From a virus: a stretch of DNA of 41,368 nucleotides. A program made the position numbers and the translations under genes. A model generated the notes under the pieces. That model was not told the origin of the DNA, searched no databases, and saw only the letters and a program-made list of their open reading frames with translations. This document shows, piece after piece, positions 1-41,368 of the stretch. Every line of letters begins with the position of its first letter. Positions within the stretch are counted from its first letter, which is position 1. The stretch is from the IMG/VR virus record IMGVR_UViG_3300010150_002363, positions 1 to 41,368 of that record. One strand, written 5' to 3'.

Positions 1-1
1 T

Positions 2-577
2 AAAAAAATAAATGTCTTCTTCTCAGCATCTGATAGTTTTAATCAAGCCAACTTAGGAAAAAACATGGATGAGATTGTAAGTGAGTTGGATTTAATGCTC
101 CAAAATACCGACACTAAAAATGTTAGAGCATACGTTTCTTGTGCCTTCGGAGCACCTAATGAAAGCGTAGATGAAAGAAAAGTATTGAAGGCTATGCAAG
201 CAGCACAACACATGGCTGACACTGTTGTTCTTTGTGATACAGTCGGTAAAGCCCACCCTTCTCTTATCTTCCGAACTCTTGAGTTGTCAAAACATATTGA
301 TTCTGAGATAGCACTCCATTTACATCACAGAAAGGACAAAAAAGACAATATGTTTGTAAACATTCAAACTGCTTTAGAATGGGGTATCACCGAATTTGAC
401 ACCAGTATTGGTGGATTAGGAGGTTGTCCCTTCGTTCATGGTAGTGGTAGCAATCTTTCAACAAACGACATGGTTCGATATTTAGATAAAATGGGCTATG
501 AATCGGGGTTAGATATTGCTGAACTTAATGAAATAGCAAAAATCTACAGTAAACCTCTTTTGAGTAGCAAGTGGTAA
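2..577 (+). CDS. Hydroxymethylglutaryl-CoA lyase-like protein, 3' part
   Basis: The reading frame is open from the first bases, so the true start lies upstream; the ATG at 65 is internal, because residues before it (VFFSASDSFN) already match the family. Seen: a segment RAYVSCAFGAP followed by a CDTVGK strand; the metal-binding His-x-His at 317-325 (HLHH); and the family signature GGLGGCPF with the loop cysteine at 425-427, then a GSGSNLST stretch supplying the conserved Asn. Known for the family: a TIM-barrel enzyme that splits HMG-CoA into acetyl-CoA and acetoacetate in leucine breakdown, or a related aldolase-type reaction. Odd: the residue after His-x-His is His, not the usual Asp, and the following YGQA-type segment is replaced by a Lys-rich stretch, so substrate use may differ. 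It lies 24 nt before the next gene on the same strand, so it appears to be carried by the virus; a host flank cannot be excluded. Confidence 0.8.
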   Translation, partial: KKINVFFSASDSFNQANLGKNMDEIVSELDLMLQNTDTKNVRAYVSCAFGAPNESVDERKVLKAMQAAQHMADTVVLCDTVGKAHPSLIFRTLELSKHIDSEIALHLHHRKDKKDNMFVNIQTALEWGITEFDTSIGGLGGCPFVHGSGSNLSTNDMVRYLDKMGYESGLDIAELNEIAKIYSKPLLSSKW

Positions 578-601
578 ATAGGTCAATCAAGAGGTCAAAC
601 T

Positions 602-1834
602 ATGTGGGGGTCAGCATTAATAGAAGACGACTTTGGTGAAGTTGTATCATTTACCCCTGTTCCTTATGAGGAAGTAAAACCAATTAAGAAGCAACACCAC
701 TTTGCTCCTAATGGAGATGGTTGGTTTGAATCTTCTCTTGGTTGCAACGCTGAAACACTGGTAAAGCGGCTAAGAAAAGCACGAAGAGGTAACAAAGACA
801 ATCGTGATGAGATTGATAGTTTTATCAAAGATGTTCGCACTATTAAGTCACTTGAAACCGACATAACAATCAAATCACTTTCTTGGTCTGATGGATATGA
901 AAATATCATAAAACAACTCGGTCTTGATGACCGTAAACTCAAGAGCCTACGCAAGTTTGGCGAGTCTCGATGTGTCAATCTTGAGCGTGCTTGTATAATG
1001 TGGGATAACGCCGAACAGACTCTAAAGATGTTAGATGAACATGAAGATGTTTGGGGGGTTGAAGAGCAACAGGCTTGGGCTGGCTCTATGCGAGATAGAA
1101 GCGAGGCTCGTAAAATGTGGTCTACTACGCTACATCCAACAGAAAAATTAAAAAAATCCGAGCGAGATTTTCTACAGTTTGCTGCAAATGAATTGATGCA
1201 AAAAGGGCCGATGAAGGCTACCACCATACGTAGTAATTTTTCTGATGCTGGTATGTTAAAGAAAGCACAAACAGACAGAAAACTCACAACGCTCATAAAT
1301 ATGTATGGAGAAAACTACGATATTGTCAAAGGAGCAGTGAGAAACACATACGTCGTTATATCCAGTGATGGTTTGGTTATGAAAGATGTATGGTCGTATA
1401 GTGCTGGTTTCATTGACGCTGATGGGTACATTACAATTACTGAGCGTGGTGAGCCTCGGGCTGGTATGATTGCTACTGGGGATAGAGGAAAAGTTCATTG
1501 TGAAGATTTATTCAAAACACTGGAATGTGGCATTTTGTCTACTGATAATAAAGTATACAAAGACAACCAAAGAAGCCAACATCGTTTACAATTTTATTCT
1601 AAGGCTGACTTACGAAAGTTACTTGGTGGGGTGTCCCCTCACTTGAAAATGAAGTCCATTCAAGCGAAGGCTGTTTTAGCCTACATTGATGAAAAAGATA
1701 AAACTCGTAAGCAAGAACTCAAACGCTTAGTGCGATACGAAAACTGGAAAGATGACAAAAAGAAATCTCGTGCTCTGTTAGATGGTTGGGGAATTGACAT
1801 GGACACTATAGGAAAATACAGGGAGGGTCTATGA
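602..1834 (+). CDS. Protein with C-terminal LAGLIDADG endonuclease-like domain
   Basis: 410 residues. The C-terminal third carries one LAGLIDADG-type motif, SAGFIDADGYI, at about residues 267-277. It is followed by a pattern typical of that fold: a strand with TGDRGKVHCEDLFKTL, a Tyr/Arg-rich strand, KADLRKLLGG, then a long helix to about residue 360. The upstream part (about 185-260) looks like a winged helix: a helix with FAANELMQKG, a recognition-helix-like stretch, and a final strand TYVVISSDG. The first 180 residues are helical, Trp- and charge-rich, and unrecognised. LAGLIDADG proteins are homing endonucleases or maturases, or derived DNA-binding regulators. The gene sits just before the portal, where many tailed viruses keep a terminase subunit, so recruitment into packaging is possible but unproven. 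GAGGTCA at 591 supports the ATG at 602. It overlaps the portal gene by 4 nt. Confidence 0.65.
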   Translation: MWGSALIEDDFGEVVSFTPVPYEEVKPIKKQHHFAPNGDGWFESSLGCNAETLVKRLRKARRGNKDNRDEIDSFIKDVRTIKSLETDITIKSLSWSDGYENIIKQLGLDDRKLKSLRKFGESRCVNLERACIMWDNAEQTLKMLDEHEDVWGVEEQQAWAGSMRDRSEARKMWSTTLHPTEKLKKSERDFLQFAANELMQKGPMKATTIRSNFSDAGMLKKAQTDRKLTTLINMYGENYDIVKGAVRNTYVVISSDGLVMKDVWSYSAGFIDADGYITITERGEPRAGMIATGDRGKVHCEDLFKTLECGILSTDNKVYKDNQRSQHRLQFYSKADLRKLLGGVSPHLKMKSIQAKAVLAYIDEKDKTRKQELKRLVRYENWKDDKKKSRALLDGWGIDMDTIGKYREGL

Positions 1835-3603
1835 TGGCTGAAGAAAATCAAAGTATTGTAAGTCGTTTTCTTTCTACATTAGCAAGCCCGTTTAGACGAA
1901 GGACTACCCCTCAACCGCAGATGCCTCTGTATACCACTGGTATACAAGAGCCAGTTTTAGCACAAGGTATTACTCTACCAGCACTTTATGCTGTGTCAAA
2001 TGAAAATTTAATTCTTAGAACCGTCATTACAAAACTTGGTCAAGAAGTATTCCGTAGAGGTTATTTTTGGGAAAAGAAGTTTCGTATGAAATGTACTGAA
2101 TGTGAAGAGGAGTTTCAGCATGAAGTCGAAGTATGTCCTTCTTGCAACGGTGAAGTTCGCAAACCTGACCCCGAGCAGGTTGTGTACGGTAAATGGTTAC
2201 TACAACAAGAAAACTCTATGGAACAGGGTTTTATGCAAATTCTTCATGAAATTGAGCGTGATTTGAATATCGTAGACGACGCATTCCTATTGATGATTAA
2301 AGAGTATTATGTTGATGAAAAAACTGGAGAAGTGCAGTTTTACAGAGTCAAAGAACTCATTCGTGGTGACCCTATCTTTATGAGAATTATCGCTGACAAG
2401 CGTGGTGTTCGTGGTGGTCGATACAAGATTTGTCGTATTCATCGTGACCAAGTTGCATATCCCGGTCAAGAGCCAAAGTGTCAAGTTTGTGGTGCTCGCT
2501 TAGTTGATGCTCATTATGTCAATATGGCAGGTTCGGGTAAGAATCAATACTTCATGAAAGGGGAAGTTCTTCATCTTTCAAAATACAATCCCGGTAAATT
2601 GTACGGACGTGCTCCTGTGAACACGCTTTGGCGACAAGCCATGACTCTAACCGCTATGGACAACTACATCTACACTGCCTATCAAAAGCGTAGGATTCCA
2701 AAGGGTATTGTAAGCGTTACGACGGACAATCTTGAATCAATGAAATCGTTTTGGAAAGGTGTTGATGAAAAGATGGAGCGTGACCCTCATTACATTCCAA
2801 AAGTTGGTATTGAATCAGCATCGGGTCGTGGTGGTGTCAATTGGATTAAGTTCATGGACACACTTGAAGAGATGCAATACATTGCTGTGCGTGACGAGAT
2901 AAGAAACCGTATCGCTGCTTTCTATGGTGTCTCTTCTATCTTTATGATTGACAATGGTAAATCAGGTGGTTTAAACAACGAAGGTCTACAGATTCTTGTA
3001 ACAAATCGTGCAGTAGAATATGGACAAAAAGTGTATACTGATGTTCTATTCCCTCGTATGCTTCGTGAATTAGATATTACTGATTGGAAACTGACTCTTT
3101 ATCCAAACGAAGAAGAAGATGAAATCACAAGATTGCGCCGTGATGAAATGGAAGTTAATCTTGCTCAGCGTATGCAAATGCTTGGGTATGAACCTGAGTT
3201 ACTTGAGGAAGGTGACAGAGACGTTCGCTTTAGTTACCGCAAGAAACCTCCTCAGCCACCTCAGCCTGAAGGACAACCTCCACAACAAAAACCCGGCGGT
3301 ATGCCTCCGCCTATGCCTCCGCCACAAGCGGGTGGTATGCCTCCTCAGATGATGCAGGGTGGTAGAATGCCTCCTCAAATGATGCAGGGTGGTAGAATGC
3401 CTCCTCAGATGATGCCTCCATCTCAACCCGGTGGAGAAGGAATGGGTATTCGTACTCCACGCTCACCAGCAAGACCTCAACAAAGAGGTAGTCCCGGTGC
3501 TGGAGCACCTGTAAGTAGTGTTCAACAAAGAGGAATGCAACCGACTATTCCTCAACAAAATGCACAACGAATGCAAGATAGCAGACGGCTTCGTGGGGCG
3601 TAA
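1831..3603 (+). CDS. Portal protein with two inserted zinc ribbons
   Basis: 590 residues. The body matches phage portal proteins: an N-terminal region with an NENLILRTVITKLGQEVFRRG helix, a clip-like middle (VLHLSKYNPGKLYGRAPV), and the characteristic segment from about 330 to 420 containing VRDEIRNRIAAFYGVSSIFM and NNEGLQILVTNRAVEYGQ, followed by a charged helix. The portal forms the dodecameric DNA channel at one capsid vertex. Two metal-binding knuckles are inserted: C88/C91/C102/C105 and C201/H204/C217/C220. These are absent from ordinary portals. The last 110 residues are a low-complexity Pro/Met/Gln/Gly tail with tandem copies of GGRMPPQMMQ. ATG codons at 1831 and 1834 both follow the strong Shine-Dalgarno GGGAGGG; either could be used. 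The 4-nt overlap with the preceding gene implies translational coupling. Confidence 0.88.
   Translation: MMAEENQSIVSRFLSTLASPFRRRTTPQPQMPLYTTGIQEPVLAQGITLPALYAVSNENLILRTVITKLGQEVFRRGYFWEKKFRMKCTECEEEFQHEVEVCPSCNGEVRKPDPEQVVYGKWLLQQENSMEQGFMQILHEIERDLNIVDDAFLLMIKEYYVDEKTGEVQFYRVKELIRGDPIFMRIIADKRGVRGGRYKICRIHRDQVAYPGQEPKCQVCGARLVDAHYVNMAGSGKNQYFMKGEVLHLSKYNPGKLYGRAPVNTLWRQAMTLTAMDNYIYTAYQKRRIPKGIVSVTTDNLESMKSFWKGVDEKMERDPHYIPKVGIESASGRGGVNWIKFMDTLEEMQYIAVRDEIRNRIAAFYGVSSIFMIDNGKSGGLNNEGLQILVTNRAVEYGQKVYTDVLFPRMLRELDITDWKLTLYPNEEEDEITRLRRDEMEVNLAQRMQMLGYEPELLEEGDRDVRFSYRKKPPQPPQPEGQPPQQKPGGMPPPMPPPQAGGMPPQMMQGGRMPPQMMQGGRMPPQMMPPSQPGGEGMGIRTPRSPARPQQRGSPGAGAPVSSVQQRGMQPTIPQQNAQRMQDSRRLRGA
3331..3417 (+). 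repeat. Tandem 27-30 bp repeat in the portal tail
   Basis: Three consecutive near-identical units starting at 3331, 3358 and 3388 encode GG(R)MPPQMMQ, the first lacking the Arg codon and the last diverging to PPS. The units differ at only a few bases, which suggests recent expansion by slippage. The region is proline- and methionine-rich and probably disordered. Confidence 0.85.
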
Positions 3604-3996: not shown

Positions 3997-4006
3997 AGGT
4001 GTTTAA

Positions 4007-5163: not shown

Positions 5164-8100
5164 TTGATTGAAACTCCTACAGACTGGTATTACAGAAGTC
5201 GTAACGAACTGCTTAAGTCAGTTATAGACGGTATAGACATTCCTTACGCTGTTGGTGACTTTCACTTTGCTAAGATGAATTTAGAAAATCATGGTGTTCG
5301 TATCGAAGAGACACCTATGGATGAAATCTGCGACTCCTTGCTTAAGCAAGTTAAAAAAAAGCGACACCGATTCGATAAGAAGCAAAAGGGTGTATTTAGT
5401 TTTGAACGAGGCTCAGAGATGCGACTCGGTGAGCATCCGTGGCAAGGACGCATGACAGAGCGTTCTTTGTTTGATTTGGCCTCATCATTTCCTCATGCCG
5501 AGTTTGCTCAAGGACAGCATTATTCTGAGTCTCATCCTCATCACAAAGACCACCACCCTTTGCGTCAGAAGCACGCCATAACTGGTAGGTCAAAAATGAT
5601 AGAAAAGTTACGACGCTTCTACTTAGCATCTAAACCCGGTGGTATGAGTTTGGCTCAACGATATAAAGAAGCCGAAAAGGGTAAAGAAAACTATGAGCAA
5701 AAACAAAACAACTTGTCGGTAGTTGGTAAGACGAAGTTTGACAATGCGGTAAATAAAGATGTCAAACACTACAATCATCTCGGGCCTTTGAAAGACAATT
5801 ATGCTCACGACCTTTATCTCCGAGACTTTGAGCGATGGAAAGGAGAAAACCCAGCCTCCGTTAAAGAGATGATGAACAAATATCCCATACCCGATGAACA
5901 TGAGCACGCTCTACAATTGATGCACTTTGAAGATGCATCCGACAGATGGGAGGGTGACCAATATCACAGTGAAATGCACGACCCAAAGGAAGGTATGACG
6001 GAACAGGAGATTCATGACCATCTTTACAGCGGTAAGAGTGATTCTGAACTTGAGCCAAAAGCGCTTAGAGAAGCGCTTGGCTACGAGGGTTATCTCTATG
6101 GTTTGGAATTTTTATCTCCGCTTGAAAGACAGAAAGTTATCAATCACGTTCACGGAGTTGGTACAGACGCTCACGATGCTCAAGACATTGACTTAGGTGG
6201 CGGTATGCGTATTAGCGCTGGTCGTATCAAAAGAAATCTTGCTCAAAGATTTACTGGTGAATTTGACCACTACATGCGACCTCAACACATGCATGGTGCG
6301 AATGTTAGGAAACACTATGAGACAATTGAAGATATACCCTTTGGGGAGTCAAGATTCATTAATCAATCCTTAATACAGGCGATGCAAGACATTCCTTTCG
6401 ACAGTGATAACCAATCTTCGACATCTGTGTATGACAATCTTCTATCGGAATACAACGAACTTCTTACTGAGCATCAAGATGCTTTTGACGTTGGAACGTA
6501 TGAGAAACCACCTGAAGATGAAAATTTCATCAACCAACTTCCAATTAGTGCGATGCGACAAGGTGCAAAAATTCATGAGGGTGCAAAAGCCCATCCAGTT
6601 CATCATGGTGAAGGTATTCTTCAAGAGTTGAAGACACTTGATGAAAAAGAGCAAAATTTTGTAAATGTAAAAACAATGCTGGGTCTTATGGGTTACAACG
6701 AAGATATGACTGAAATGGACTCACATCCTTTGTTACTTGGGTATGAAGGAGCGCTTGTCTCTCAGCCTAAGATAAAACAAATTATGGACAGAGCAAAAAA
6801 GTTGGCTGAGGAAAATAGAGAGCAAAAGCCAATTCGCAATCATGATTGGTTTCATCACGGAGGGTCAAACGGTTATGACATCACTGACATTCCAGTAAAT
6901 GAAAGAGAGCATTACTTAACTGACGATAATAATAATATCATCGGACTCGGTGCTCACTTTGCTGATGAGTTTCATCATCAAGGCGGTATGGGTAGAAACG
7001 TCTTGCATTACTTAGAAATGATACATGATTCTTCACCAAAGGATGCTGAAGGTTATTCTGTCATTGGTAAAGTGGATGGTAATGAATTTATTCCTAATCC
7101 AAAAACAATAGGGCTTTGGGGTCGATACGTTCCTTCTCTGTATTCAAAAGAGATAAAAGAGCACATCGGAGGGCATGGTATCACTTCCCTGTGGGATTCT
7201 TCAAATCACATTCATCGTAAACCAAGAAACAACAAGAACATGCCTTTTCGACAAGCATCTTCTCTAAACGGAGAATATGCAAATGCAATTCGCTACATGA
7301 GTGAAAAAGAAAGGGAAATCTACTACAACGGCTCTGCTTGGAATGTTCATAAAGATGGTGCAAATCACTTCGGCACAAATCCAATTAACGCTATAGGCGG
7401 TATGGGTATGCAAGTTACACAATCGCATACAAACTCAGTAAGAACTCATCGTAATGCAACAATGGGTGGTCGTCTTCATCCTCCTCATGAACCTATGAAA
7501 AAGAATCGTCGTCTTAGTCGAAAAAATTTACCCGCTGGGTCAAAACTTAGTCACAACGAAGGTAGTAAAGAATTGTTTCGTGTTCATCAAGGACACAAAA
7601 CAAAGAAAACTGATGCAAAAAGAGCATTAACTGAGTCACAACGAACCGCTATTCAAGAATTAGACGATGAGTATGATAACATTAGTGAAGAGATAATGAA
7701 CTACGAGCAAGGTAGCGATGAATACGCACGAGCCAATCTCCGACTGCATGAAATAGAATCTCAAATTGATGACATCAATACATTGGCTCAGCCTGATTTT
7801 GTTAATGCATTTGAACATTTAGGCAATCATTCAGAGAAAAAAGATGAAAGTGACATGAACGCTATCTTGGCTATGGCTCAAAAAATGAAACCTGAATATG
7901 AAAAAGCAGACTCTGATGCTTTTAATCCTGAGTTTCCTGATAAGTTCATAGCAAATACTTCTCGTTTATTCAAAGATGCTAACCTTGCTTTGATGCGATT
8001 ACCTCACGAAGCGCATGGTTTAGAAACGCATGGCTATGGTGAAGTTACGAGAGAGCAAAAAAGCGCCAGTGAATTGCTTTCTCAAGGCGATAATGTTGTA

Positions 8101-10709: not shown

Positions 10710-12098
10710 GTGTTGCGAACTCAACGTAGAAACAGTATCGAACTCCTCAAGGGGTCTAATGACCTCATTGTGGCAGGGTATGCTTCAGTTGAACTCGTAG
10801 ACAAGCAAGGGGATTTAATTACAAGGTCGGCATTGAAAGACGCTTTCAAAAAATTCATGTCTGACCCAAAGTATCGAAACGTCCAATTAGCACATTCAAA
10901 CATTCAAGTCGGAGAAGTAATATCAAATTATACAGATAATCAAGGGAGGTTGTGGAAAAGCGAAGTAGACGATGCCGGAATGTTTGTTGTAGTCAAATTA
11001 AGAAACGACATCGAGAAGGCTCGTGAAGTATCAAGTGAAATCCGAAAAGGAAACCTAACAGGTTTTAGCATCGGAGGACAAGCATTCAAACGAGTAAACA
11101 AAAGCGACAAATCCCACGGCTCATATCAAGAAATATCAAAACTGGAACTACACGAAATCACAATATGCGAAAAAGGAATTAACCCCGAAGCCACATTCAA
11201 TATACTAAAAGAAGACAAAAACAAGGTGAACAAAATGACCGAAGAAGTAATGGAACAAATGAACGATGTATTAAGCCGCTTAGAAGGCCGACTGGACTCT
11301 ATGGAGAAAGGAGAACTACCCCCTGCGCTACAAGCCGCTATGGAAAAGAAAAAGAAGGGTAAGTCTGATTCCGATGACCCCAAAGACGACAAACAAGAGA
11401 AGGGTACTTACATGGATAAAGACGAAGACGATGAGAAGGACAAGAAAGACGACAAAAAGAAGTCTGAGTTCTCTGATGTTATCACATCTGAATACCTTGA
11501 CTGGATGGAAAACACACTCAAGTCTGCTGGTGTAGACACTGGTGCTGCTCGCACTCACTTTGATACAGTAGCAAAGGCAAACCTCGGCTCCACTCCTGAA
11601 GCAATTGGCGATGGTGCTGATTACTTTGCTGGACAAGTCAAGGGTCGTGCTCAAGAAGGAGGCAACCCATCTACTAACGCTATCCAGCGTGCTGGACTAA
11701 GCGGTGGTGGCAGTGTCGAAAAGTCTGACTTTATCACTGGTCGTGACATCGACTCTCACCGAATCGAAGAAGCATACGGTGTCTTCAAGGCTGCAAAGCA
11801 AGAAGAAGCGTTCCGTAAGTCTCTTGAAGCAAACTTTGAAGGTCGCTTCGCTCAAGAATCCGCTGAAGAAATCTCAAAAGCACAAGCACAAAACTTTGAC
11901 GCTCGTGCTCCTCTTGATGAAGTCATGAAGGCTCTCGGAGCACTCAATGAGCGAATCGACAATCTTTCAGGTGGCGCTGGCGAAACAATCGCTAAGTCTG
12001 TCAACCCAGCACTCGAAGTACCAAGTACACAAGACTTGGCAAACATGAGTTGGGATGAAGTTCACCAACTGGCTGGAGGGCTATACCGCAGCGAGTGA
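10710..12098 (+). CDS. Capsid maturation protease fused to scaffold domain
   Basis: 462 residues. The first 170 match the XkdF/HK97-type prohead serine protease: VAGYASVELVDKQGDLIT, then AHSN with His62, FVVVKLRNDIEKAREVSSEI, then GFSIGG with Ser120, and a closing strand KLELHEITICEKG. The rest is a helical, highly charged scaffold: a coiled coil at about 175-200, a Lys/Asp-rich linker, then an Ala/Glu-rich C-terminal half ending with MSWDEVHQLAGG (446-457). In this family the scaffold part organises capsid proteins, and the protease then digests it inside the procapsid. The GTG start at 10710 is supported by AGAGGAG at 10695-10701. It lies 39 nt before the major capsid gene. Confidence 0.88.
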   Translation: MLRTQRRNSIELLKGSNDLIVAGYASVELVDKQGDLITRSALKDAFKKFMSDPKYRNVQLAHSNIQVGEVISNYTDNQGRLWKSEVDDAGMFVVVKLRNDIEKAREVSSEIRKGNLTGFSIGGQAFKRVNKSDKSHGSYQEISKLELHEITICEKGINPEATFNILKEDKNKVNKMTEEVMEQMNDVLSRLEGRLDSMEKGELPPALQAAMEKKKKGKSDSDDPKDDKQEKGTYMDKDEDDEKDKKDDKKKSEFSDVITSEYLDWMENTLKSAGVDTGAARTHFDTVAKANLGSTPEAIGDGADYFAGQVKGRAQEGGNPSTNAIQRAGLSGGGSVEKSDFITGRDIDSHRIEEAYGVFKAAKQEEAFRKSLEANFEGRFAQESAEEISKAQAQNFDARAPLDEVMKALGALNERIDNLSGGAGETIAKSVNPALEVPSTQDLANMSWDEVHQLAGGLYRSE

Positions 12099-23127: not shown

Positions 23128-23132
23128 GGTGA
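23125..23132 (+). promoter_or_regulatory. Stop-embedded Shine-Dalgarno TGAGGTGA
   Basis: TGA at 23125-23127 ends the upstream gene, and GAGGTGA is the ribosome site for the giant gene four bases downstream. Exact copies occur at 4339, 13735, 14441 and 19423; in the last three the TGA is again a stop codon. It matches the complement of the usual 16S rRNA 3' end. Confidence 0.75.
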
Positions 23133-23136
23133 CGAT

Positions 23137-35100: not shown

Positions 35101-38100
35101 GGTGATAGTGAGGCTGACTCTGTATCTTACGGCGTTGATGACCCAATAGCGTTTGGTACATATGTTGTAGGCTGGGCTGACGGTGCTCAGTTTAACAACC
35201 CACCAGTTATGCGAGACATGCCTGAGATACAGAAAGAGTTGATTCATGCTCAAGGCACTTACTCTCGTGCTTTGTTGGTTGTAGCCCACGAGGGCGAACT
35301 TAGTTTGGTGGCAAGAAAGGACAGAGACAACTACACCTCTACAGGTGATTACTTGTTGGCTGGAGGCACTACCCAATGGGACGAACGATTCCACCACAGT
35401 GACCGCTTTGTAGCACCTGCTAACGCTGGGCCTAACGTAGAGGCTTTGATTGCCGATAACACAGCGCCTCCTACCATTAGTGACTACACTGCAAGCGGAG
35501 TGTTAGATAGTAGCCCATTCAACGCTCAGATACATTTACACGGCTCAATTTCAGCAGACACATCTTTGTCAAACGCTGAGCCGTGTCTTGCTGAAACTGG
35601 TGATTTGTTCTTCGACATTGACAAGAACGTAGGTATTCTAAATCATAAGGAAGCAGCGGGTATAGCAAACAGAAACCTTGCTACTGATTTTATTACAAAT
35701 TCCAACCCATCGACGCAGATGACCTCAACCACTCATGCTACTCAATCAGGTATCTTTTGGGCTGGTGATGTCAATGCTTACGATGTATTAAAGCGCAGTC
35801 CTCACAAAAACTTCAGTACAGAGCATGTTGTATGGAAACGAATGGATGGTGGGACAGTCACTATGCCGACATCCAATGCTCGTGGTTTAGGAGCAGTGCC
35901 GTGGATTACTCGTGTTAAAGATGCAGTAGTAGGAGGCGCTGCTGGAACTGCTCATCAGATGGGTGAGAAGTTGTATGGTAACATACGATTTTCTTTTGAG
36001 ACAACAAACTCGGCTATGATGCCAGTTCTACAGGCACAAGAGATAGCGCACCCTACGTTAGCGAAAGAGCACCCTATTGCTATCGGTAACGTACTTGAGA
36101 TACCAAACGAAGAAATACAGTTTGAAGATATTAGTGTTGTAGATGACACAGGACAAGTGCATACGCTTGAAGGTGGTTCGCCGTTGGGTATCGTCATCAG
36201 AGCATATAAACCTGCATCGACAAGATTAGCAAGTGGTCTACAGCCTGTCCCTGCAAACAGCGGCATACCTCCGAACTTTGAAATTCAATTGCCTGACCCC
36301 GAATCTATTCCCGGCAACATTCTTATTCGCAGTGGATTCGACCCAATTCAAGCATATCAAACAGAAACATTTGGTGACGGTGGTATGATTCACCCTGATT
36401 TGGGAGCAACACATCTTGGTCATCTGTTTGACAACGTGGTCAAATCTCCAAGAAAAGGGCCAACTATGAACGAAGTAGGATGGGAGCACATCTCACAAGA
36501 CGAGAACTTCCCTGAGTCTACTCGTGACGGCTGGGTGACGGCGACTGGTAACAACACACTACGCAGTTCCTATGAGCAGCAAGACAGAGCACTGTATTTC
36601 CATATAACAAAGATGGGTCACAGCCACACTGAAAAGTTCCCGACAACTTACACTCACTCCGCTGGTGTGGTTAATCAAGCCCTTACAGTAGATTCCTACA
36701 CTTCGACCTCAATTACAGCGAGCGCTACTATCAACGAAAACATATTCTCTACTGGCTTTGGAACACAAGAAGTAGCCGATAACCGACGATTCATACGAAT
36801 CAGCAATGCAACAGGTGAAAGCGTTATTGCTTCGTATGAGTCAATAAGTTCAGATGTGTTTGACGACCTTGTTGGTGACATTGATTTTACTCAATTTATG
36901 GCTGATAATTTTGCTGTTGGTGCATTGACCATCACACCGTCATACTACGTCCCTGCTGGTAGTGCTCGTATATTTGCTGCACGCCGACTGCGTGACCATG
37001 CCGAGGTAAGCGGTAACAGTCCTGACATGGCTCATACAGAATACTTTACTGGTAACGCACTAACAACTATTCACTCAAGATACAGTAGACCACAACTCAC
37101 TCCAATGCCTATACCTCGTATGGGTCATCACTTTGTCAATGCTACCATGCCAATGATGCCGGGTCATTGGGCGCATCCAGCCTATCAAGGATTATACGAA
37201 AAAGCGAACAGCGACCATTTAGCGTTAGTGCGTGACGAAGATTATACGACACTGGCTGACAACTTGGTCGAGGTAGACGGTACAACAAACAATCAGACCT
37301 CTGTTCCTACGGCAGTTAAAGACAGGTTATTCCCACTCAACCCAGCACTGAGAGTAGGTTCACTCACAGCCAATCCGTCAGGCCCAAGCGACATTCACGG
37401 TGGTGCATTTACGCTAATGTTTGAGACAAAAATCAAGTATGACGGCTACGGTATACTTGCGTCAAAAGGTACTGCTGGAGATATGAACAAGGCTGGTGGT
37501 CACTCGATTGTCCTTGAGGCTGGTGGTAACTATACTCAGGCTAACCACTTCCCTGACCCTGCCGAAGTTGGTGCGTATCAAATCGTCATTCAGCCAAACT
37601 TACGCTCGCAACAGGTAACTGGATTCCACTTGAACAACTCTTCAGCAACTACTCTACCCGATGTTTCCACTCCTTCAAACAACACTGCTGTTCTTACCAG
37701 TCAGCAAGTGAGTCTCGTCATCGGTATCAAGTACGACGAAGAACGACACTCAACCTTGACAGACGGTGCTAACATTGGTGGTGTCACGCTTATTCTTGCT
37801 GAGGCTACGCTGGCTGACGTAAGAGGCTGTGAGATATTCTTGAATGAGGTCATCCTTGACCACGACCCTGACCACGGTAGTCAGTTGGCTAACATTCCAC
37901 CAATGCTGCTTTATAATCCACTTGGAGTTCAAGGGTCGGAAAGTCCTTCGTTTACAAGGCGAGGTCATCCATATCACCCGACAACTCCTGACGTAGCGTT
38001 CAAAGACGCTACACCCGGCTTTACTACAAGCATACCGTGGTGGAGTATTATGCATCAAGGCACTCCGTCTGACGCATCGGCTGTTGGTTTCAGACACCTT

Positions 38101-41100
38101 TCTTTGTATCGTATCGACAACTATTATCAGTTCTGTCGAGCAAGTTATGGTGCAGTCGCTGCTCAATTGACGTTGGCTGGTTACCCAAGTATCTATCCTG
38201 ACATCTACTCCAAGATTATGGAGAACGTAAGCCTCGCTCCTACATGTAAGGTCGTCGGAGCGCATTCTTCAGCGACTGCTATCCAAGTTGATGACGCTTC
38301 TCTGTTCCCTGAAAAACCGTATTACGAACAAAAACTGCAATACATTGACTCTTCTACGGGAAAAACTGTATCGTTTAGTTATACAACTCGGCAAGGCTTG
38401 AGTCACAGTTCAGCGACCATGAATGAGCCTGATGTGTTTCATCTACCAACGGGAGTTACCATAGCCGATGGCACAAAACTAACACTGAGTAAATCATATT
38501 CTACAAAATCAGTAAACGACATCTTCACTAAAGATAACGAAAGTGTTTTGACCAAAAATCTCAGTCAGTTGCTTACAGGAACGAGAGACACAAACAGTCT
38601 TTTCTCAACTGACTCATATCTATGTGCTTGGAGTCCTAACTTGGGTCGGCCTCATACATTCTACTCAGATGCCAGCCGAACTTGGATTACAAACGGTGAC
38701 AATCATACATTAGACAGAGCCGTTAATAACGCCGCATACAACAGTATGCCACAGCACTTTGAGACAATTCACTACCAAGATGTCAATTATACAGCAAGTC
38801 ACGGCCCACTTACATTACAAATGAAGACACCTGTTCCACCTAAAGCACTTGCTGGGACTGTTAGTTCGGTTACAACTACAACTGTTACCGTTATCACAAT
38901 GAGTGACACAGTTACTGGGGTGAGCAACCAAGATGTCTTGTTTGCTAATGGGCGAGTTCTTGGTAGAGTAAACGGCGTTAGTGGTGCAGACATCACTCTT
39001 TACTCTGAGATATTTGAGAGTAATCTTGCGGCAGGTGACAAGGTATACCTTGATGGTGATGGTGAAATTCTAAGCGGTACAGACATCAACTCCATCAGTG
39101 GTTTGTCGGCTCAAGGTGGGGCTTACATGCTTACCAATTACTGGCCTTGCGGCAGTCGTGGTGGGCCACTGATTAGTCGATTAGACGGTTACGCTATGTC
39201 ATCAGCAGCGTGGCACGTTCCACAAAGTTACGCACATAATGCTGGTATACATTGGAAAGATGACGATGATGACGGTAGTTATGCGGTTGCTAATGGTGTG
39301 AGCACTACTTCACTTAGCAGTATACGAACATATCCGTTTGGTTATCGTTTCGGACTACGACAGGCTTGGAACAGACCTCAATGGGGTCATTATGGTATGC
39401 GAGCATTCCAAGAGCAAGCCACACACTCAGGTGCAAGCAATCTTGCTGTTGGTTACAAAGCAGGGCCACTGGTTGAGTATGAAACTATAACAAGTAACGG
39501 GTGGCTTTACGCTGGCGGAGACAGCACACAAAGCAGTACCAACCTACCGACTACCTATGTTGGTATTCTTGAGCGTGGAACAACTGCTGCTGGTATGCTG
39601 AATGCCGACAAATACGAATGGCAGGTGCGTTACAGCGATGGACGACGAATGACGAGAGGATTTGGATGCGCTCTACGCACTTTGAAGAATGCCAGCACTG
39701 TGATACGAGATTGGTGGGGCGATTCCGCTGGTATGGGTAAGAACTTCTACAAAGATGCTGTATCGTATTATCTCATCGACTGGTGGGGTAACACTCGTGG
39801 TGAGGATATTAGGCGTATGCCTGTTCGTAGTTTTGGTATCAATCCATCATGGGATGCTGGAGATGCATACGAGTATGATAGAACTAATGGTAGAACACCT
39901 TACGCCCGTATATGGAACAATAACAAGCCTATCTTCAATCTCAAGGGAATAGCCGCTGACTCAGATACATCATCGGGTGCAGTATTAGCATCTCCAACGG
40001 TTACAATACCTCGCTTTGGTGGTAGAAAGAACACTGGTAACAACAATGCAGACACCACGTTGGTCGATGTGTTTGCTCCTACCAACGCACTACGAGTAGG
40101 AGACATGGGTAACGGACGTGGTGTACGATTCCCAACACAATTCAATGAGGACAGACTGGTTGAACTCAGTGCAGTGTACCAAAACTCAGGTGTTGTCTTA
40201 TCAAGCAACACTGCTGAACCTACATTCGGTCAAGGCTTGATTCGACCAAGAAACGATGCACTACAACCAAGTGAAATTGTCAGAGGTATTAGTGCTCGGT
40301 TGGAAGTCGATGAGGACGGACTACTCAAACCTGAAGCAACAGTCAGCGACAAGGTAGAATCCATCAGCGGGACATCGGTTCACAAGGATGCTGTTTCTCG
40401 CTCGTCACCACGAATTGGTATCGACGGAGACACCGTAGAATCCTTGACTGGCAGCAACGCCAACATGGTAGCCATCAACTCAGAAGCACACAGTCTACAC
40501 ACTAACAGAGGTGTGGGTCAGAGAGTTGTGCTACATGGTGGTATGCAGTCAGGCTCTCAAACGCTTGGCGACTACGACCTGACAGCCTTGTCCTTCGCTG
40601 CTCAGCCTCATGGTGGTGTGATGCGATTCAGCCACACAAGTAACTTCAAGCCTATGGGTGGAACTTACATCTTGGAGGCTCGTAGTTTCGCCAGTCCATT
40701 CGATGATACAGGTTGGGGACGAAGTGGTATGAGTGGTACAAAGACAAGCAACCCATACCAAACAACAAGTTCAGTAGCCAGTCAGACAAACATGGCTGAT
40801 GATTCAGTGCAGTTTATGCTGCGACCTATACGACTCCTCGACAACCAACACATAGCGGTATTCAGACCAGCATTGGCTTTGCACACTGATAGCAAGCAAA
40901 ACGGTAGCACTGCGTTCACTGCTACTGCTGGTGGTAAGTATGGAATGTTTACCTACTCAACTCCAAACGGTAGAGCAAGCAGCGGGTCATACATGCGTGC
41001 TACCAATCCTAACACATCAGCGCCATACCAACCAGTGTATCTTGTTGAGAGCAGTAGCGACACTGTGCCAGTATCGAAAGGGCCGAAGTTACCGGGAACA

Positions 41101-41316
41101 GAGGTTACTGGCTTTGATAAGACGACACTGAAGAGCACTGTTACTCGACTTGTCATCAGTGAAAACACATTACAGCACTTCAAGAGTGATGCTCCAAGAA
41201 GAACTGGTGAGAGTAAAGACTACACCGTCAAACCAAGATTCAGTCAATCGTTGCACAGCAAGGGACATAAGGAAGATGTATCGTTCAATACATCAGACCA
41301 CAGTGGTGATGCATGA
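23137..41316 (+). CDS. Giant tail / receptor-binding protein (6059 residues)
   Basis: One open frame of 18.2 kb, 44% of the window. Modules seen, by approximate residue: 8-230 a laminin-G/concanavalin-like domain (ALFFDGVSDSVIIP; KAEIYINGDLVAQQ); 1905-1975, 2065-2128 and 2686-2764 three glycine-rich modules built on GSGYNNG or AGSGYGAG with a later acidic or glycine-rich turn and short strands, a type common in marine phage tail proteins; 3651-3723 a β-domain with the pattern TANVTSGVAAIAVTG, then GQSISGTGIQANSVV; 4755-4913 a second laminin-G-like domain (FTLMFETKIKYDGYGILASKG); 5037-5100 and 5240-5310 small β-modules; and a Trp-rich C-terminus. Most of the rest is β-rich and unrecognised. 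It probably forms a baseplate hub or fibre that recognises host surface glycans (inference). No signal peptide or catalytic motif is evident. Confidence 0.78.
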   Translation: MPIMLQSNHALFFDGVSDSVIIPQGNFSKLGEDYDKETAITRKSSASIVSHATGRGMIADVLGNGLAIEAWVVPDCGGVVLMKDGQFRLSIGSVDTPGPVEFEANLSSSIGSMKVFLRSAQPETNGYDGQVYPVTTFDGLDDSYNRFDSGKDKATSLSQNQRPLYHLVACINNGKAEIYINGDLVAQQIIPIDATLVSNNSHVYIGGKGGEFRGVIEGIHVSSSFSNEMTTRNPSMVGDKTVSLYRFEEPVTPLKDVYTITGTSADSNLTLLAIDSTDAQALADALTGKTITDSSVDFTVSPYSTGDYSVIDRYSTPGTTINHLVPHVPYNLLINPGSINQDSKKPNGKPPERVRLHSIDINNGKLLVSSIHLDFKTTTNTNGLRPILHSTHTPANGANSFVVISADCLIENGTGRPYQPPHLATQLIDRAGQMLIDEGQYEQHAMVYSSRMSTTAVDTNNPFAVAWPTDLDESFQIGHSGRHTLNHVQGHHYLRLMPRANEETLDQQAGNSDILTLTYDAASKGIDSMFPINSQVDYYKDTASFETLRVVNDSIVHEIVSNGLSGADRTLIALGGASATSNDFDPLPFVLKGPVPQDMNNIDANVRKFHLHPSRDSRVALLHVPTLASRGLAPYVEVHYNAIDFTGASMSKTAPMLMIEKTVPASNYVVSSGVYVYDDIATDVAAGNATLYAAGGYIDVGKSKEGNLGSVNFSHSLVGDISEGFEADVELDERLTPANFTASGTVGNTTPQNLTASHTTKAQHDSVFHRILIERVADSGSLTLSSEFNRMTPHTVHGSPSAGQFDIGVTSSASPIHEIFDIIDNVEIKNSPTITHRFFVQPSDRARTNQLQYVYSKRDRPNSSNIATVMFLMGRSKLRGIEQVEDENGRSTLVHCVGLSDVASTRSINELGSGSPDSHVVKEIDPNAPVVSVTLGGVGQGAYDTKPSFDISTLAHLPYSSRRGFSCLATKVRVDLSTSNGTQFIEVSPLNNDSPDLASWGTYPFPKIGRIYLKNGANAEYQSKTGACFLFSDSHVSTRRFLLPNGNAVATFQEWVIGSGLRKDASALSGTQSQDFPLGEIIMGDGHFFIENLQSDGTTVNDRMFQSMDNVSHDYQLGTQFASTRALVEIPLFRGQFFIDKKNNSYPSPDNSLKLHIDPTMTAHTWNPSPVGRRYQDLPPSDRSAYGAYAKSILTNERKNQSNIVNFETLSSAYRVYVSNPTMFPAGDVTTSNTKHFNVDNVLLFRRVFLPSGEWAMYSNNPTTDGYIEIVKEKSYVSKGFISGLVTGTPLIMGNSYDSEVLVPLKGDALNVAADFENRSEYYYDSASVKTQGGNVDYGLRQYVSAVEFKAGPLSNPHAARVQSGRATGTILSVEPIMNGSVYTGFAHLIMSQEDVNKFPSIERQPNDINSDYEWKMGQAHYSLEIGTNTFVYFGEGNKNKSTLVSGGLTPTDSLDTLSSIIVMTKENNATPSYLKNDTLKGEVATLTKYGYDVFFSSDKYNTKLDNTVNKSHTGRAVFYSSPWEITGLTATDTLALSSATKSQLVQANTLYLNVKPNDWIYAEHEIGGSAVTVTLLGQVDYIVEGAIKGNPVTVPAVDSRIHLKAAVTGDNLASLNNMIAQASSSPTSDKVYIRTGCHSMMKNDEEACLNRTWLFPYAQGGLRRGDTVWMNMTYNNPHAVQGMFAKSRGVLNEALVWKGFNGGQGLMATEPRDSIPLENFLIGDSCIETARNFVQHVNKTIELNYTNLGISNPPTIAYLDPYLATEGHARVLLYDVAHDREFVAFQDIHMQVQTSPKAAELGFERLSSSLNVADGTDEIDLSNYSIKYNGGAQNPFITQIDVANGYPSQNKYIREYQHSNFMESAYAHNIANNMSNETLQPVTGIVTRLEPIGATFQHRQNGTGYATATNVATTSINAGGTGLRVNITAASGQITDIQVHTAGSGYNNSRGGREAKVRISGGGNNAVFKVFTTNTSVVNATTAMTQAALYGKAHGHFIHTGYHTGGPLAKKRTLGDSITSRTNNAVAIPYHANKEHDKTRKLFSSNDILIKALMQHRVSKGKSLSLKDGGSGYNNGTFYNVKTTTNGQGHGMTVDVTISGAAVVTAVINRQGDTSYEEGDTIFISDRSLHILPLATANVSGDGKGSFTLFMNRRNEETSTLFDTPDGTRVIPAFLALKGVRSEALDLSNMSETRLQHLPQWTQMDFTRRMTIDLGEVAVRDGITSVEAAATEVVRMINQAAAKKGRTHSNNTNKQYPVKIAGEADFATTGSTHDPVVWWDEDKAFESHDKGTHMGYVRAHLGRVVRDIDGNEEGFSVIIHSTVPGATGRNFAVWLDNSKGQVPYKPEFMIGHGGRFRTFWCLPDELSGENMHPAPMPLNKHGRPFAPITSLRQYTQPDESMQVVASKGEFSNNHDETTTPRLRAVSAHSGSGQNHNTLNTESLEVEGFNTSFTEGLRVGTNAVARINFGGLVSAGIPGFAPDAGQWGFGRKGNDKLANDYGQLTKVSNTDPATSYTGHIPTAQVFPDSIGDSSMYAMRLQDHRGVEHGIRYIYKNIGEKFALDNTLLPKTLENEIVVYFNHKDCSQGGFTIGKHMHGISDPTGRFPAIPDNAALANWRGNLWRGAPAPNASYNTDVVYNTTDKTITVTLYAPYDDCPHHDLLGYMGFPVENGVIHLSDPYNDIGEVSSLSAGSGYGAGLSGAVATGTGDGSGMTLSIDTNGSGEVTAVVITSLGEGSYTNGETITVVGQGGTNATFTFSNSLSGNWGNMFSYTHRTRDNNAGRTGTHVFHGVTGDTYSSQHKIHTHSSTAPKLTIGNYVVGEETDAISALITPVANWTTLVTDELMAAVTAAAINLSDPNEGTTFDCTDMYAADGRTFGEWGITEESISIKAYNTKGNIESISNFFTANLSQDVGIRASHIEYGEVESLKLNGDGVTVGGDGTRPIGDGLIAKGRSINCGYIPSTIIQITTKGRGHNANTATPNIVDSQNNPINTNTWRKNLIGENFIESSGDLILPNLDNPTLKMTNVHSASIMALHSDNEMWHFAKPAGQEASVNHYENGQTHDYTRVDSFGNKTSISYGIETAVTEGQNVNSGGFVSEKAFSQLSDENLRSSKWPSAIPSPAETLVIQKYADKRAYLFAGKRSLGSVHSLPIIHFTGARDGPDNYVPLYFGGGFSGATIDINDGTKNDYSEHNTHPYANGPTGSAGIQNANEVLSSFSTLDCNAIMAFFPATALLKQHHGSINPPVYNKDNILSQDLKRGAWAGVGSTHPNLAPYAAGVHMQVPSPMVLRFAHPTARYNDHRDGVENKTTYIIFGPGQAFPLTQEVTSPINTFEPHPGHAVSTGNTWSRVPNMTNSRPFLPNHIQNSTGEYMPERAATQLAKHRFHYRQVLNWESPVGIPDTVFLRERPENGRNYGNSLTTNAFEHYSTASNFTDDVAKAYAVVQPSRHAMFYGGGMVKNSDLCWHMDNGNHPGGSWMDNQITMNPPRESDSLRVALATGATQINKTAFRVAGTLATRMLYSNDNSSSPDFAAETLVHGDVDHEYIVVDATRCQNGEELACLLGAAINTFPGKGALKAIGGTFMPSMGNSTRQDRYGWLEARTTNIRNDVYGGATPVGTVTGATDVAGHGYSNNVVSTTPMVRTVTAPVTFTANVTSGVAAIAVTGTFPATIQAGQSISGTGIQANSVVASVDSVGGTVTVNPAPNVSNSGVTITYIHNTLGNTASSASNLKSGDCFIDLVVLAGAGVDEQANANRVPASGWLRTEANHDYGGAVSSSVKSSAWASYHSRAFYRDGTDLFCRFYLSNNKLTGLKAFEDGEAWRIYANTSTAFNSTSGSNVGGVTLPHPAVNTTGNPTVGTTVWIWSKSGTIGVDNSASSRFTTYGIGATHFSGIADAIDRTKPVGAVGWHGERYSYLNTLSVDSGFSAGLGAWHSMLGFSPYGGSSSCANVLGHLPHTTPLPNSPESMPPTDIPGRSLTNFPSDGDSEADSVSYGVDDPIAFGTYVVGWADGAQFNNPPVMRDMPEIQKELIHAQGTYSRALLVVAHEGELSLVARKDRDNYTSTGDYLLAGGTTQWDERFHHSDRFVAPANAGPNVEALIADNTAPPTISDYTASGVLDSSPFNAQIHLHGSISADTSLSNAEPCLAETGDLFFDIDKNVGILNHKEAAGIANRNLATDFITNSNPSTQMTSTTHATQSGIFWAGDVNAYDVLKRSPHKNFSTEHVVWKRMDGGTVTMPTSNARGLGAVPWITRVKDAVVGGAAGTAHQMGEKLYGNIRFSFETTNSAMMPVLQAQEIAHPTLAKEHPIAIGNVLEIPNEEIQFEDISVVDDTGQVHTLEGGSPLGIVIRAYKPASTRLASGLQPVPANSGIPPNFEIQLPDPESIPGNILIRSGFDPIQAYQTETFGDGGMIHPDLGATHLGHLFDNVVKSPRKGPTMNEVGWEHISQDENFPESTRDGWVTATGNNTLRSSYEQQDRALYFHITKMGHSHTEKFPTTYTHSAGVVNQALTVDSYTSTSITASATINENIFSTGFGTQEVADNRRFIRISNATGESVIASYESISSDVFDDLVGDIDFTQFMADNFAVGALTITPSYYVPAGSARIFAARRLRDHAEVSGNSPDMAHTEYFTGNALTTIHSRYSRPQLTPMPIPRMGHHFVNATMPMMPGHWAHPAYQGLYEKANSDHLALVRDEDYTTLADNLVEVDGTTNNQTSVPTAVKDRLFPLNPALRVGSLTANPSGPSDIHGGAFTLMFETKIKYDGYGILASKGTAGDMNKAGGHSIVLEAGGNYTQANHFPDPAEVGAYQIVIQPNLRSQQVTGFHLNNSSATTLPDVSTPSNNTAVLTSQQVSLVIGIKYDEERHSTLTDGANIGGVTLILAEATLADVRGCEIFLNEVILDHDPDHGSQLANIPPMLLYNPLGVQGSESPSFTRRGHPYHPTTPDVAFKDATPGFTTSIPWWSIMHQGTPSDASAVGFRHLSLYRIDNYYQFCRASYGAVAAQLTLAGYPSIYPDIYSKIMENVSLAPTCKVVGAHSSATAIQVDDASLFPEKPYYEQKLQYIDSSTGKTVSFSYTTRQGLSHSSATMNEPDVFHLPTGVTIADGTKLTLSKSYSTKSVNDIFTKDNESVLTKNLSQLLTGTRDTNSLFSTDSYLCAWSPNLGRPHTFYSDASRTWITNGDNHTLDRAVNNAAYNSMPQHFETIHYQDVNYTASHGPLTLQMKTPVPPKALAGTVSSVTTTTVTVITMSDTVTGVSNQDVLFANGRVLGRVNGVSGADITLYSEIFESNLAAGDKVYLDGDGEILSGTDINSISGLSAQGGAYMLTNYWPCGSRGGPLISRLDGYAMSSAAWHVPQSYAHNAGIHWKDDDDDGSYAVANGVSTTSLSSIRTYPFGYRFGLRQAWNRPQWGHYGMRAFQEQATHSGASNLAVGYKAGPLVEYETITSNGWLYAGGDSTQSSTNLPTTYVGILERGTTAAGMLNADKYEWQVRYSDGRRMTRGFGCALRTLKNASTVIRDWWGDSAGMGKNFYKDAVSYYLIDWWGNTRGEDIRRMPVRSFGINPSWDAGDAYEYDRTNGRTPYARIWNNNKPIFNLKGIAADSDTSSGAVLASPTVTIPRFGGRKNTGNNNADTTLVDVFAPTNALRVGDMGNGRGVRFPTQFNEDRLVELSAVYQNSGVVLSSNTAEPTFGQGLIRPRNDALQPSEIVRGISARLEVDEDGLLKPEATVSDKVESISGTSVHKDAVSRSSPRIGIDGDTVESLTGSNANMVAINSEAHSLHTNRGVGQRVVLHGGMQSGSQTLGDYDLTALSFAAQPHGGVMRFSHTSNFKPMGGTYILEARSFASPFDDTGWGRSGMSGTKTSNPYQTTSSVASQTNMADDSVQFMLRPIRLLDNQHIAVFRPALALHTDSKQNGSTAFTATAGGKYGMFTYSTPNGRASSGSYMRATNPNTSAPYQPVYLVESSSDTVPVSKGPKLPGTEVTGFDKTTLKSTVTRLVISENTLQHFKSDAPRRTGESKDYTVKPRFSQSLHSKGHKEDVSFNTSDHSGDA

Positions 41317-41368
41317 TGGGTTTACTCAAGGACAAGCGAGCAACAGCCGACACGGATGTTGTGATGAA
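41313..41368 (+). CDS. Start of a following gene, truncated by window end
   Basis: ATG codons at 41313 and 41316; the first overlaps the giant gene's stop as ATGA, the coupling used repeatedly in this operon. Eighteen codons are visible (MMGLLKDKRATADTDVVM), too few to assign a function. By position, another tail or adhesion-associated protein is likely. Confidence 0.6.
   Translation, partial: MMGLLKDKRATADTDVVM

What the first reader, a model, noticed from the sequence alone, without database searches (positions are those of the whole stretch)
1..41368. Complete absence of four 4-base palindromes: GATC, AGCT, CTAG, CGCG
Reading all lines and line junctions by eye I found no occurrence of these words. 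With a GC content I estimate at 43%, a random sequence of this length would hold roughly 150 each of GATC, AGCT and CTAG and about 90 CGCG. Other 4-base palindromes (GTAC, CCGG, GGCC, TCGA, GCGC, ACGT) are present, so this is specific. Codon choice shows the pressure: TTA rather than CTA before G, GAC rather than GAT before C-starting codons, and TTG rather than CTN after codons ending in AG. Phages are known to lose restriction sites of their hosts. Zero sites for several motifs suggests a host lineage with several restriction-modification systems and a virus without its own DNA protection. The motif set could be used to identify the host.
Basis: partly seen in the sequence, partly recalled or inferred. 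Interest (0 to 1): 0.85.

Follow-up and report, generated by a model that had tools for sequence, protein, structure and literature searches.

The report
Archaeal virus purged of restriction sites
This is a piece of a virus that very probably infects abundant, uncultured ocean archaea, and it and its relatives have erased whole sets of short DNA words that host cutting enzymes would recognise, leaving a readable record of defences in hosts nobody has grown.

Summary
The window is very probably a magrovirus of Poseidoniales archaea (inferred from gene content and thermosome relatives). Among 94 non-redundant relatives, with 15 or more sites expected, AGCT is zero in 92 of 94, GATC in 90 of 94, CCWGG in 51 of 51. 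CGCG, CTAG, ACGT, GTAC, TCGA, GGWCC and GCWGC are purged or kept by lineage, with 4 to 11 changes each on a 61-row tree. Best reading: elimination of type II restriction sites. Purging of several words is already in print for haloviruses (PMC7230728); new here are a shared core of three words across a clade and mosaic turnover of the rest. Open puzzle: recognisable cognate nucleases are rare in host genomes.

The parts
1..41368 (.). Whole virus record, free of GATC, AGCT, CTAG, CGCG, CCWGG and GGWCC; CCAGA 0, TCTGG 2
   Evidence: synonymous-shuffle null; record extent
65..577 (+). C-terminal part of an HMG-CoA-lyase-like gene (5' end lost at the contig edge)
   Evidence: Pfam HMGL-like 9.6e-9; homologues in 11 of 15 long relatives
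602..1834 (+). ORF with an HNH-type match, beside the portal gene
   Evidence: phrog_5046 8.1e-8
1831..3603 (+). Portal protein
   Evidence: phrog_18178 1.8e-60; tblastn to 11 annotated records, haloviruses and methanogen viruses
5164..10665 (+). 1833-aa virion-module ORF present in all 15 long relatives, no family match
10710..12098 (+). Capsid maturation protease
   Evidence: Peptidase_S78 2.2e-10
12138..13313 (+). Major capsid protein, 33-34% identical to HVTV-1, HCTV-5 and HCTV-1; used to collect relatives and for the tree
17407..19425 (+). Tail tube protein
   Evidence: Phage_tube_2 5.9e-8
23137..41316 (+). 6059-aa ORF, 44% of the window, equally free of the words
   Evidence: same-length ORF in G012
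8443..8447 (+). One of two surviving TCTGG sites
26983..26987 (+). Second surviving TCTGG site

Best explanation
The window is part of a head-tailed virus of marine Poseidoniales archaea (a magrovirus) that survives orthodox type II restriction mainly by having no recognition sites. Point mutations that remove a site are selected whenever the virus meets hosts carrying the matching enzyme; because one uncut-protected site can be enough to lose a genome, selection drives the count to exactly zero. GATC, AGCT and CCWGG are a nearly permanent pressure on the whole clade; CTAG, CGCG, ACGT, GTAC, TCGA, GGWCC, GCWGC, CCAGA and several 6-base words come and go as lineages meet different host R-M genes. 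For some site it instead methylates itself, since the longer record of this virus carries a cytosine methyltransferase. Shown: zero counts, lineage turnover, fitting classes of R-M genes and mild depletion of GATC and AGCT in putative hosts, the viral methyltransferase gene. Inferred: the host, that R-M enzymes are the agent, and what the methyltransferase protects.
For: Exact zeros against a null that keeps the proteins. Zero counts in 94 non-redundant loci where at least 15 sites are expected: AGCT 92 of 94, GATC 90 of 94, CCWGG 51 of 51, CGCG 32 of 75, CTAG 30 of 92, ACGT 27 of 86, GTAC 17 of 94, TCGA 12 of 93, GGWCC 9 of 66, GCWGC 9 of 83; AATT, ATAT, CATG, CCGG, TATA, TGCA, TTAA none. ACGT is all-or-none: 27 zeros, none between 0 and 0.5 of expectation, 59 above. 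Record G002 (103 kb): AGCT 0/505, GTAC 0/471, GATC 0/348, CTAG 0/313, TCGA 0/272, ACGT 0/259, CGCG 1/158. CCSGG is 2.5-fold enriched where CCWGG is zero. Changes on a 61-row capsid tree: CTAG 11, ACGT 9, GTAC 9, CGCG 7, CCWGG 0. Displaced counts go to transversion and transition neighbours alike. Putative hosts: top cellular hits of the viral thermosome are Poseidoniales or untyped Euryarchaeota genomes, 37-40% identity. In 145 Poseidoniales genomes, over cut-off: PF00145 16, PF02086 19, PF01555 81. EcoRII-C lies next to a C5 MTase in G040 and RE_Eco47II next to a C5 MTase in G025. Host GATC 0.53 and AGCT 0.49 of expectation are the lowest of 14 four-base palindromes counted in 37 pooled loci. 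The same logic (purge or methylate) is published for archaeal tailed viruses (PMC8651126 section 9).
Against: Cognate nucleases look too rare for universal core words: DpnII family 0 of 145, EcoRII-C 1 of 145, Eco47II 1 of 145; no nuclease for AGCT was searched or identified. CCWGG is only mildly depleted in hosts (0.82). Hosts with Dam-type genes do not agree: G023 has GATC 15/111, G024 38/110, but G020 68/90. Two of the seven GATC-bearing virus loci differ much from the rest in being only half depleted (17/49, 26/71), so regain is not all-or-none; no PF02086 gene was found in those records (0 of 7), and why GATC returned is unknown. CGCG and CTAG have many intermediate values. EcoRII-family nucleases also have other specificities (Ecl18kI is a hit too). 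The host assignment does not rest on CRISPR spacers.
Confidence: 0.84

Rival explanations
1. The virus itself carries sequence-specific nucleases that shred host DNA, and its genome lacks the sites so as not to cut itself.
For: Exact zeros fit self-protection; the core words are shared by almost all members as a core gene would be; a PD-(D/E)XK gene is in G002 and G012 and its cluster in 10 of 15 long records; a homing-endonuclease model and an SNF2 helicase match in G002; putative hosts keep the words as targets; the Apasviridae profile mentions restriction enzyme-like nucleases (PMC12999244, whole text).
Against: In 10 long records no gene cluster is present exactly where CTAG, CGCG, GTAC, ACGT, GGWCC or CCAGA is zero, though several miss by one record for CGCG, GTAC, ACGT and GGWCC. 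No type II nuclease family among 58 of 98 ORFs of G002. Eighteen different words are zero somewhere in the clade. The test cannot reach the core words, which are zero in all ten, nor TCGA, zero in one.
Confidence: 0.07
2. A mutational or structural bias (deamination of methylated sites, cruciform avoidance) removes palindromes.
For: 6-base palindromes outside the purged 4-mers are low in 11 long records (ratio 0.37 to 0.66), as they are in HCTV-1 and HVTV-1 (0.47, 0.43).
Against: Seven 4-base palindromes are never zero; the same word is zero in one lineage and near expectation in a near relative; displaced counts go to transversions as well as transitions, e.g. CCCGG at wobble phase 26 observed, 4 expected.
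Confidence: 0.03
3. The agent is another host defence with short motifs: phosphorothioation (Dnd), or nucleases that cut modified DNA such as Mrr at methylated GATC.
For: One of 90 ORFs near host methyltransferases matches DndC (by its sequence probably L264:2424-3551, beside a Dam-type gene in G040). PMC7230728 (passages) names both phosphorothioation at GATC and Mrr action on methylated GATC as possible causes in haloarchaea.
Against: This could explain GATC, hardly AGCT, CCWGG, CTAG, CGCG and the W/S-degenerate pairs.
Confidence: 0.05

Closest known systems
HF1-group haloviruses (PMC7230728; passages seen)
   Same: Several words purged at once in archaeal tailed viruses: GATC and CTAG zero in seven isolates, AGCT zero in HRTV-7, GGWCC absent in all viruses but HRTV-7, twenty-one 6-base palindromes absent; read as diverse host defences
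   Different: A different virus group and host; there two 4-base words are common to the group and three at most zero, here three core words plus up to five further 4-base palindromes, with repeated gain and loss along a tree
Purge-or-methylate rule in archaeal tailed viruses (PMC8651126, section 9 read)
   Same: GATC absent where no Dam MTase is encoded; HCTV-1 and HVTV-1 (first 50 kb) have 0 GATC; G012 likewise combines purging with a methyltransferase gene
   Different: HCTV-1 has two zero 4-base palindromes (GATC, CATG) and HVTV-1 one (GATC), both with CTAG low (10/45, 11/51); both carry deazaguanine genes and HVTV-1 an annotated DNA methyltransferase
Restriction-site elimination in phages (PMC6286503, passages and first part of the discussion)
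   Same: Sites of orthodox type II systems nearly excluded in non-temperate dsDNA viruses
   Different: There 3.9% of all tested pairs, 7.5% in one subset, are eliminated; here 4 to 7 four-base palindromes at once and three words in almost a whole clade
Magrovirales (PMC12999244, PMC10768690; both read whole)
   Same: ~100-kb genomes with PolB, clamp loader, chaperonin, HMG-CoA-lyase-like gene
   Different: Neither profile mentions word purging; the Aoguangviridae profile labels an HsdS gene; the group (A, B or other) of the window was not determined

Membership tests
Restriction-site elimination (anti-restriction strategy) | Observed/expected below 0.1 with at least 15 expected | tested here: met
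   AGCT, GATC, CTAG, CGCG, CCWGG, GGWCC all 0 with 35 to 197 expected
Restriction-site elimination (anti-restriction strategy) | Host encodes the cognate R-M system | tested here: inconclusive
   R-M genes of fitting classes exist but are rare or of unproven specificity
Restriction-site elimination (anti-restriction strategy) | Virus does not methylate the purged site itself | tested here: inconclusive
   G012, the same virus population, carries a complete C5 MTase of unknown site; PF00145 in 1 of 27 viral records, PF01555 in 0 of 16, PF02086 in 0 of 11; records are fragments
Restriction-site elimination (anti-restriction strategy) | Non-temperate virus | tested here: inconclusive
   no integrase family among Pfam matches of 58 of 98 G002 ORFs; not tested in G012
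Magrovirales | Capsid and portal related to Druskaviridae | tested here: met
   marine origin not shown by any search
Magrovirales | PolB, clamp loader, chaperonin and HMG-CoA lyase-like genes in a ~100-kb genome | tested here: met
   Pfam matches in G002; G012 has the PolB, clamp-loader and thermosome clusters, the window the HMGL-like gene
Magrovirales | Direct match to an exemplar (OR863078, ON649702, PP497039) | not testable with these tools
   exemplars not in the collections
Virus of Poseidoniales | CRISPR spacer, provirus or shared tRNA | not tested
   only thermosome relatedness; no tRNA in the window

The most novel reading that the evidence does not exclude
The missing words are a readable, time-layered barcode of the restriction enzymes in uncultured ocean archaea. 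The three core words reveal a restriction pressure against GATC, AGCT and CCWGG that is almost universal in Poseidoniales but is not explained by the R-M genes recognisable in their genomes, so either an unrecognised class of nuclease or R-M islands systematically lost from metagenome-assembled genomes is at work; half-depleted words (GTAC and ACGT in this window) record past exposures, and a viral cytosine methyltransferase marks the one word that this virus learned to methylate instead of erase.
Probability: 0.38. Interest if true: 0.8.

Novelty: new member of a known kind. Interest (0 to 1): 0.57.

Why it matters
[quoted passage not shown] A clade whose genomes show, word by word, which restriction specificities it has met would let defence repertoires of uncultured hosts be inferred from virus sequence, lets gains and losses of R-M pressure be placed on a tree, and gives a cheap flag for chimeric virus contigs. 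It also poses a sharp question: what acts on GATC, AGCT and CCWGG throughout these hosts?

Tried and rejected
Correction made on re-checking: my motif scan and the family searches then available suggested no viral DNA methyltransferase. A PF00145 search of 27 viral records found a complete C5 methyltransferase and a second partial one in G012, the window's own longer record. The motif scan had missed it. The claim was withdrawn. A homologue (66% identity) lies in L393/L394 and an amino-methyltransferase-like ORF (about 30% to the host one) in L365; 20 host C5 and 62 host amino-MTase-like proteins were compared with 284 fetched viral loci and pieces, many of them redundant. L393 purges ACGT, GCGC and GCWGC, so if the two methyltransferases share a site it is none of these.

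Also on re-checking, PMC7230728 and PMC3622292 were opened (passages): purging of several words in haloviruses is in print. Novelty and interest were lowered for that (interest from 0.66 to 0.57, novelty from new variant to new member).

Virus-encoded nucleases as the cause: see rival 1. One 80-aa cysteine-rich cluster (c67) is present exactly where CTAG is present in 10 records, but with 324 clusters and 7 words this may be chance.

Dam methylation as reason for GATC regain: PF02086 in 0 of 11 records, of which 7 bear GATC, 2 bear AGCT and 2 neither. Six of them were scanned ORF by ORF for methyltransferase motifs: two short ORFs of 104 and 109 aa in G172 matched, too short to be methyltransferases.

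Conserved host methyltransferase (about 318 aa): 29 of the 30 best-scoring loci fetched have the same neighbours, which by sequence look like phosphoglycerate kinase and an aminopeptidase (not searched). Hosts with it (17 loci) have lower GATC, AGCT, CGCG, CTAG, ACGT and CCGG than hosts without (17 loci), but ancestry confounds this. Its nearest solved relative is a putative methylase. Whether a nuclease lies near was not tested beyond 1.5 kb.

Deamination or general palindrome avoidance: rejected. Assembly artefact: unlikely, because relatives of the same collection hold the words; record G013 has all 12 GATC and all 23 AGCT sites after base 58,919, which marks a foreign tail.

Gave nothing: thermosome scan with a wrong protein; phmmer of the ORF beside a host Dam gene, of the Eco47II-like ORF and of the short G012 methyltransferase-like ORF; Rfam and tRNA scans of the window. 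PADLOC on 39 G002 proteins matched mainly one SNF2 helicase to ZorD/DpdE/DrmD models, and a homing-endonuclease model (25 of 47 families shown).

Literature: searches; term searches in PMC10160649, PMC7962313, PMC12451623 and PMC5628999 found nothing on palindrome or restriction avoidance in magroviruses. The two main magrovirus papers, PMC5434244 and PMC11706807, are not held, so absence from print is not claimed.

Full report
OBSERVATION. GATC, AGCT, CTAG and CGCG have no occurrence in the 41,368-base window, and no other tetramer has three or fewer. Shuffling synonymous codons over 23 genes gives 110, 197, 102 and 50 copies; the lowest of 200 shuffles were 86, 169, 81 and 34. Further words: CCWGG 0, GGWCC 0 and CCAGA/TCTGG 2 (shuffle means 47, 35 and 76). 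GTAC and ACGT are at about half of expectation. CCSGG and GGSCC, one mutation from purged words, are enriched 2.5-fold and 1.6-fold. That displaced counts go to neighbours follows from the zeros; what is informative is that they go to transversions as well as transitions.

WHAT IT IS. The window is the whole of a virus record with portal, maturation protease, capsid and tail tube genes, a 6059-aa ORF and the end of an HMG-CoA-lyase-like gene. Among 50,697 annotated phage records the capsid and the portal each match 11 records, all haloviruses or methanogen viruses. Record G012 (79 kb) matches window 4570-41368 at 99.992% and adds the replication half. Relative G002 has PolB, clamp loader, thermosome, SNF2 helicase and PD-(D/E)XK matches. 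These are traits of magroviruses as given in two ICTV profiles. The thermosome's best cellular relatives in a capped list are Poseidoniales or untyped Euryarchaeota genomes, at 37-40% identity. That this is a magrovirus of Poseidoniales is well supported but inferred.

THE CLADE. Capsid and thermosome scans (each capped at 80 loci) gave, with the long records, 202 sequences of 8 kb or more; 94 remained after removal of near-duplicates, with G012 standing for the window. Zero counts where at least 15 are expected: AGCT 92 of 94, GATC 90 of 94, CCWGG 51 of 51, CGCG 32 of 75, CTAG 30 of 92, ACGT 27 of 86, GTAC 17 of 94, TCGA 12 of 93, CCAGA 10 of 44, GGWCC 9 of 66, GCWGC 9 of 83, CTSAG 5 of 76, GTWAC 4 of 90, AGWCT 3 of 89, and GCGC, CGWCG, CASTG and GGCC in one or two; AATT, ATAT, CATG, CCGG, TATA, TGCA and TTAA never. 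One of the records counted as non-zero, G013, has its GATC and AGCT sites only in its last 4.4 kb. ACGT is all-or-none (27 zeros, nothing up to 0.5, 59 above); CGCG and CTAG have many intermediate values. G002 lacks six 4-base palindromes and has one CGCG. Of 6-base palindromes outside the purged 4-mers, 9 of 25 testable ones are zero in the window and 25 of 41 in G001, 8 of 32 and 7 of 34 in two haloviruses, and 0 of 52 to 61 in six pools of putative host loci, where pooling hides genome-specific zeros.

TURNOVER. On a capsid tree of 61 rows (quick method; 13 of 58 inner branches open) the fewest changes between zero and non-zero are CCWGG 0, AGCT 2, GATC 3, GGWCC 4, GCWGC 4, TCGA 5, CGCG 7, CCAGA 8, ACGT 9, GTAC 9, CTAG 11 (one of the two AGCT-positive rows is the chimeric G013). 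G001, 96% identical in capsid, has CTAG but no ACGT. In 21 gene pairs, none of 34 alignable CTAG sites of G001 is unchanged in the window (21 synonymous, 13 with amino-acid change) and none of 30 ACGT sites of the window in G001 (15 and 15). That none survives follows from the zeros; for scale, 42-43% of background 4-mers, 22 of 73 TGCA and 33 of 69 CATG sites are unchanged.

VIRAL METHYLATION. PF00145 matches 1 of 27 viral records: G012, with a complete C5 methyltransferase (L082:17171-18202, 343 aa, 1.4e-50) and a 227-aa ORF that matches positions 2-79 only (PADLOC MTase_II). A 66% identical homologue lies in L393/L394 and an amino-methyltransferase-like ORF in L365. PF01555 matches 0 of 16 records and PF02086 0 of 11 others. 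Of five motif hits, only the one in G002 was followed up (no methyltransferase family). So methylation is rare in the clade but present in the window's own virus, and it coexists with the purging of at least six words. An ArdC-type domain is in G002; by its HExxH motif it is probably cluster c70, found in G002, G005, G006, G008 and G011 but not in G012.

HOST SIDE. In 145 Poseidoniales genomes, matches over cut-off are PF00145 16, PF02086 19 (10 with E under 1e-20), PF01555 81. Of the 30 best PF01555 loci fetched, 29 are one conserved methyltransferase in one neighbourhood. Nucleases: RE_Eco47II 1 of 145, EcoRII-C 1 of 145, DpnII 0 of 145; the first two adjoin C5 methyltransferases. Some methyltransferase loci hold phage genes and may be foreign contigs. 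Putative host DNA keeps the words: in 37 pooled loci (650 kb) GATC 0.53, AGCT 0.49, CGCG 0.68, GTAC 0.77, CCWGG 0.82, CTAG 0.95 of expectation. These loci were chosen by hit rank and title; several titles say only Euryarchaeota and one Rhodobiaceae, and 25 of the 36 genomes checked bear handles of the order sample or are its centre. Dam-type genes do not track GATC cleanly: G023 15/111, G024 38/110, G020 68/90.

READING. Zeros, palindromic and W/S-degenerate words, lineage turnover, synonymous escape and a purge-or-methylate mix fit elimination of type II sites. What does not fit easily is the near-universality of three words against the rarity of recognisable cognate nucleases in host assemblies. 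Loss of R-M islands in binning, or unrecognised nucleases, would explain it; neither is shown.

PRECEDENT. Site elimination in lytic phages (PMC6286503), GATC purging or methylation in archaeal tailed viruses (PMC8651126), and purging of GATC, CTAG, AGCT, GGWCC and many 6-base words in HF1-group haloviruses (PMC7230728), also GATC and CTAG in PH1, SH1 and HHIV-2 (PMC3622292), are in print. The kind is therefore known; this clade adds a shared core of three words, more words at once and mapped turnover.

Noticed in passing
L082:16491-18202 (G012, same virus as the window, outside it): A complete C5 cytosine methyltransferase and a short methyltransferase-like ORF side by side, unique among 15 long relatives; site unknown.
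   Followed up: partly
long relatives, e.g. L088:10736-12280 (G002); none in the window: A short peptide like AFDxAWxLLK recurs in unrelated viral proteins: 71 hits in 58 proteins of 24 clusters against 0.4 in shuffles; 35 of 71 lie within the first 30 residues. Perhaps a virion-cargo or assembly tag.
   Followed up: partly
window 23137-41316: A single 6059-aa ORF fills 44% of the window; its cluster is in all 15 long relatives.
   Followed up: no
L139-L140 (record G013, from about 58.9 kb): All 12 GATC and 23 AGCT sites of this record lie in its last 4.4 kb; the tail is probably a chimeric join. Word content can flag such joins.
   Followed up: partly
L310:1255-2211 and orthologues in Poseidoniales: A conserved TSPPY-type DNA methyltransferase in a fixed neighbourhood, at 60-100% identity in 19 of 36 genomes; function and site unknown.
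   Followed up: partly
cluster c67, e.g. G001 22933-23181: An ~80-aa cysteine-rich protein present in exactly those of 10 long records that keep CTAG; may be chance.
   Followed up: no
window, GTAC and ACGT: Both stand at about half of expectation while near relatives have one or the other at or near zero (L005 GTAC 3/54, G001 ACGT 0/192), as if a past purge were decaying or one were under way.
   Followed up: no
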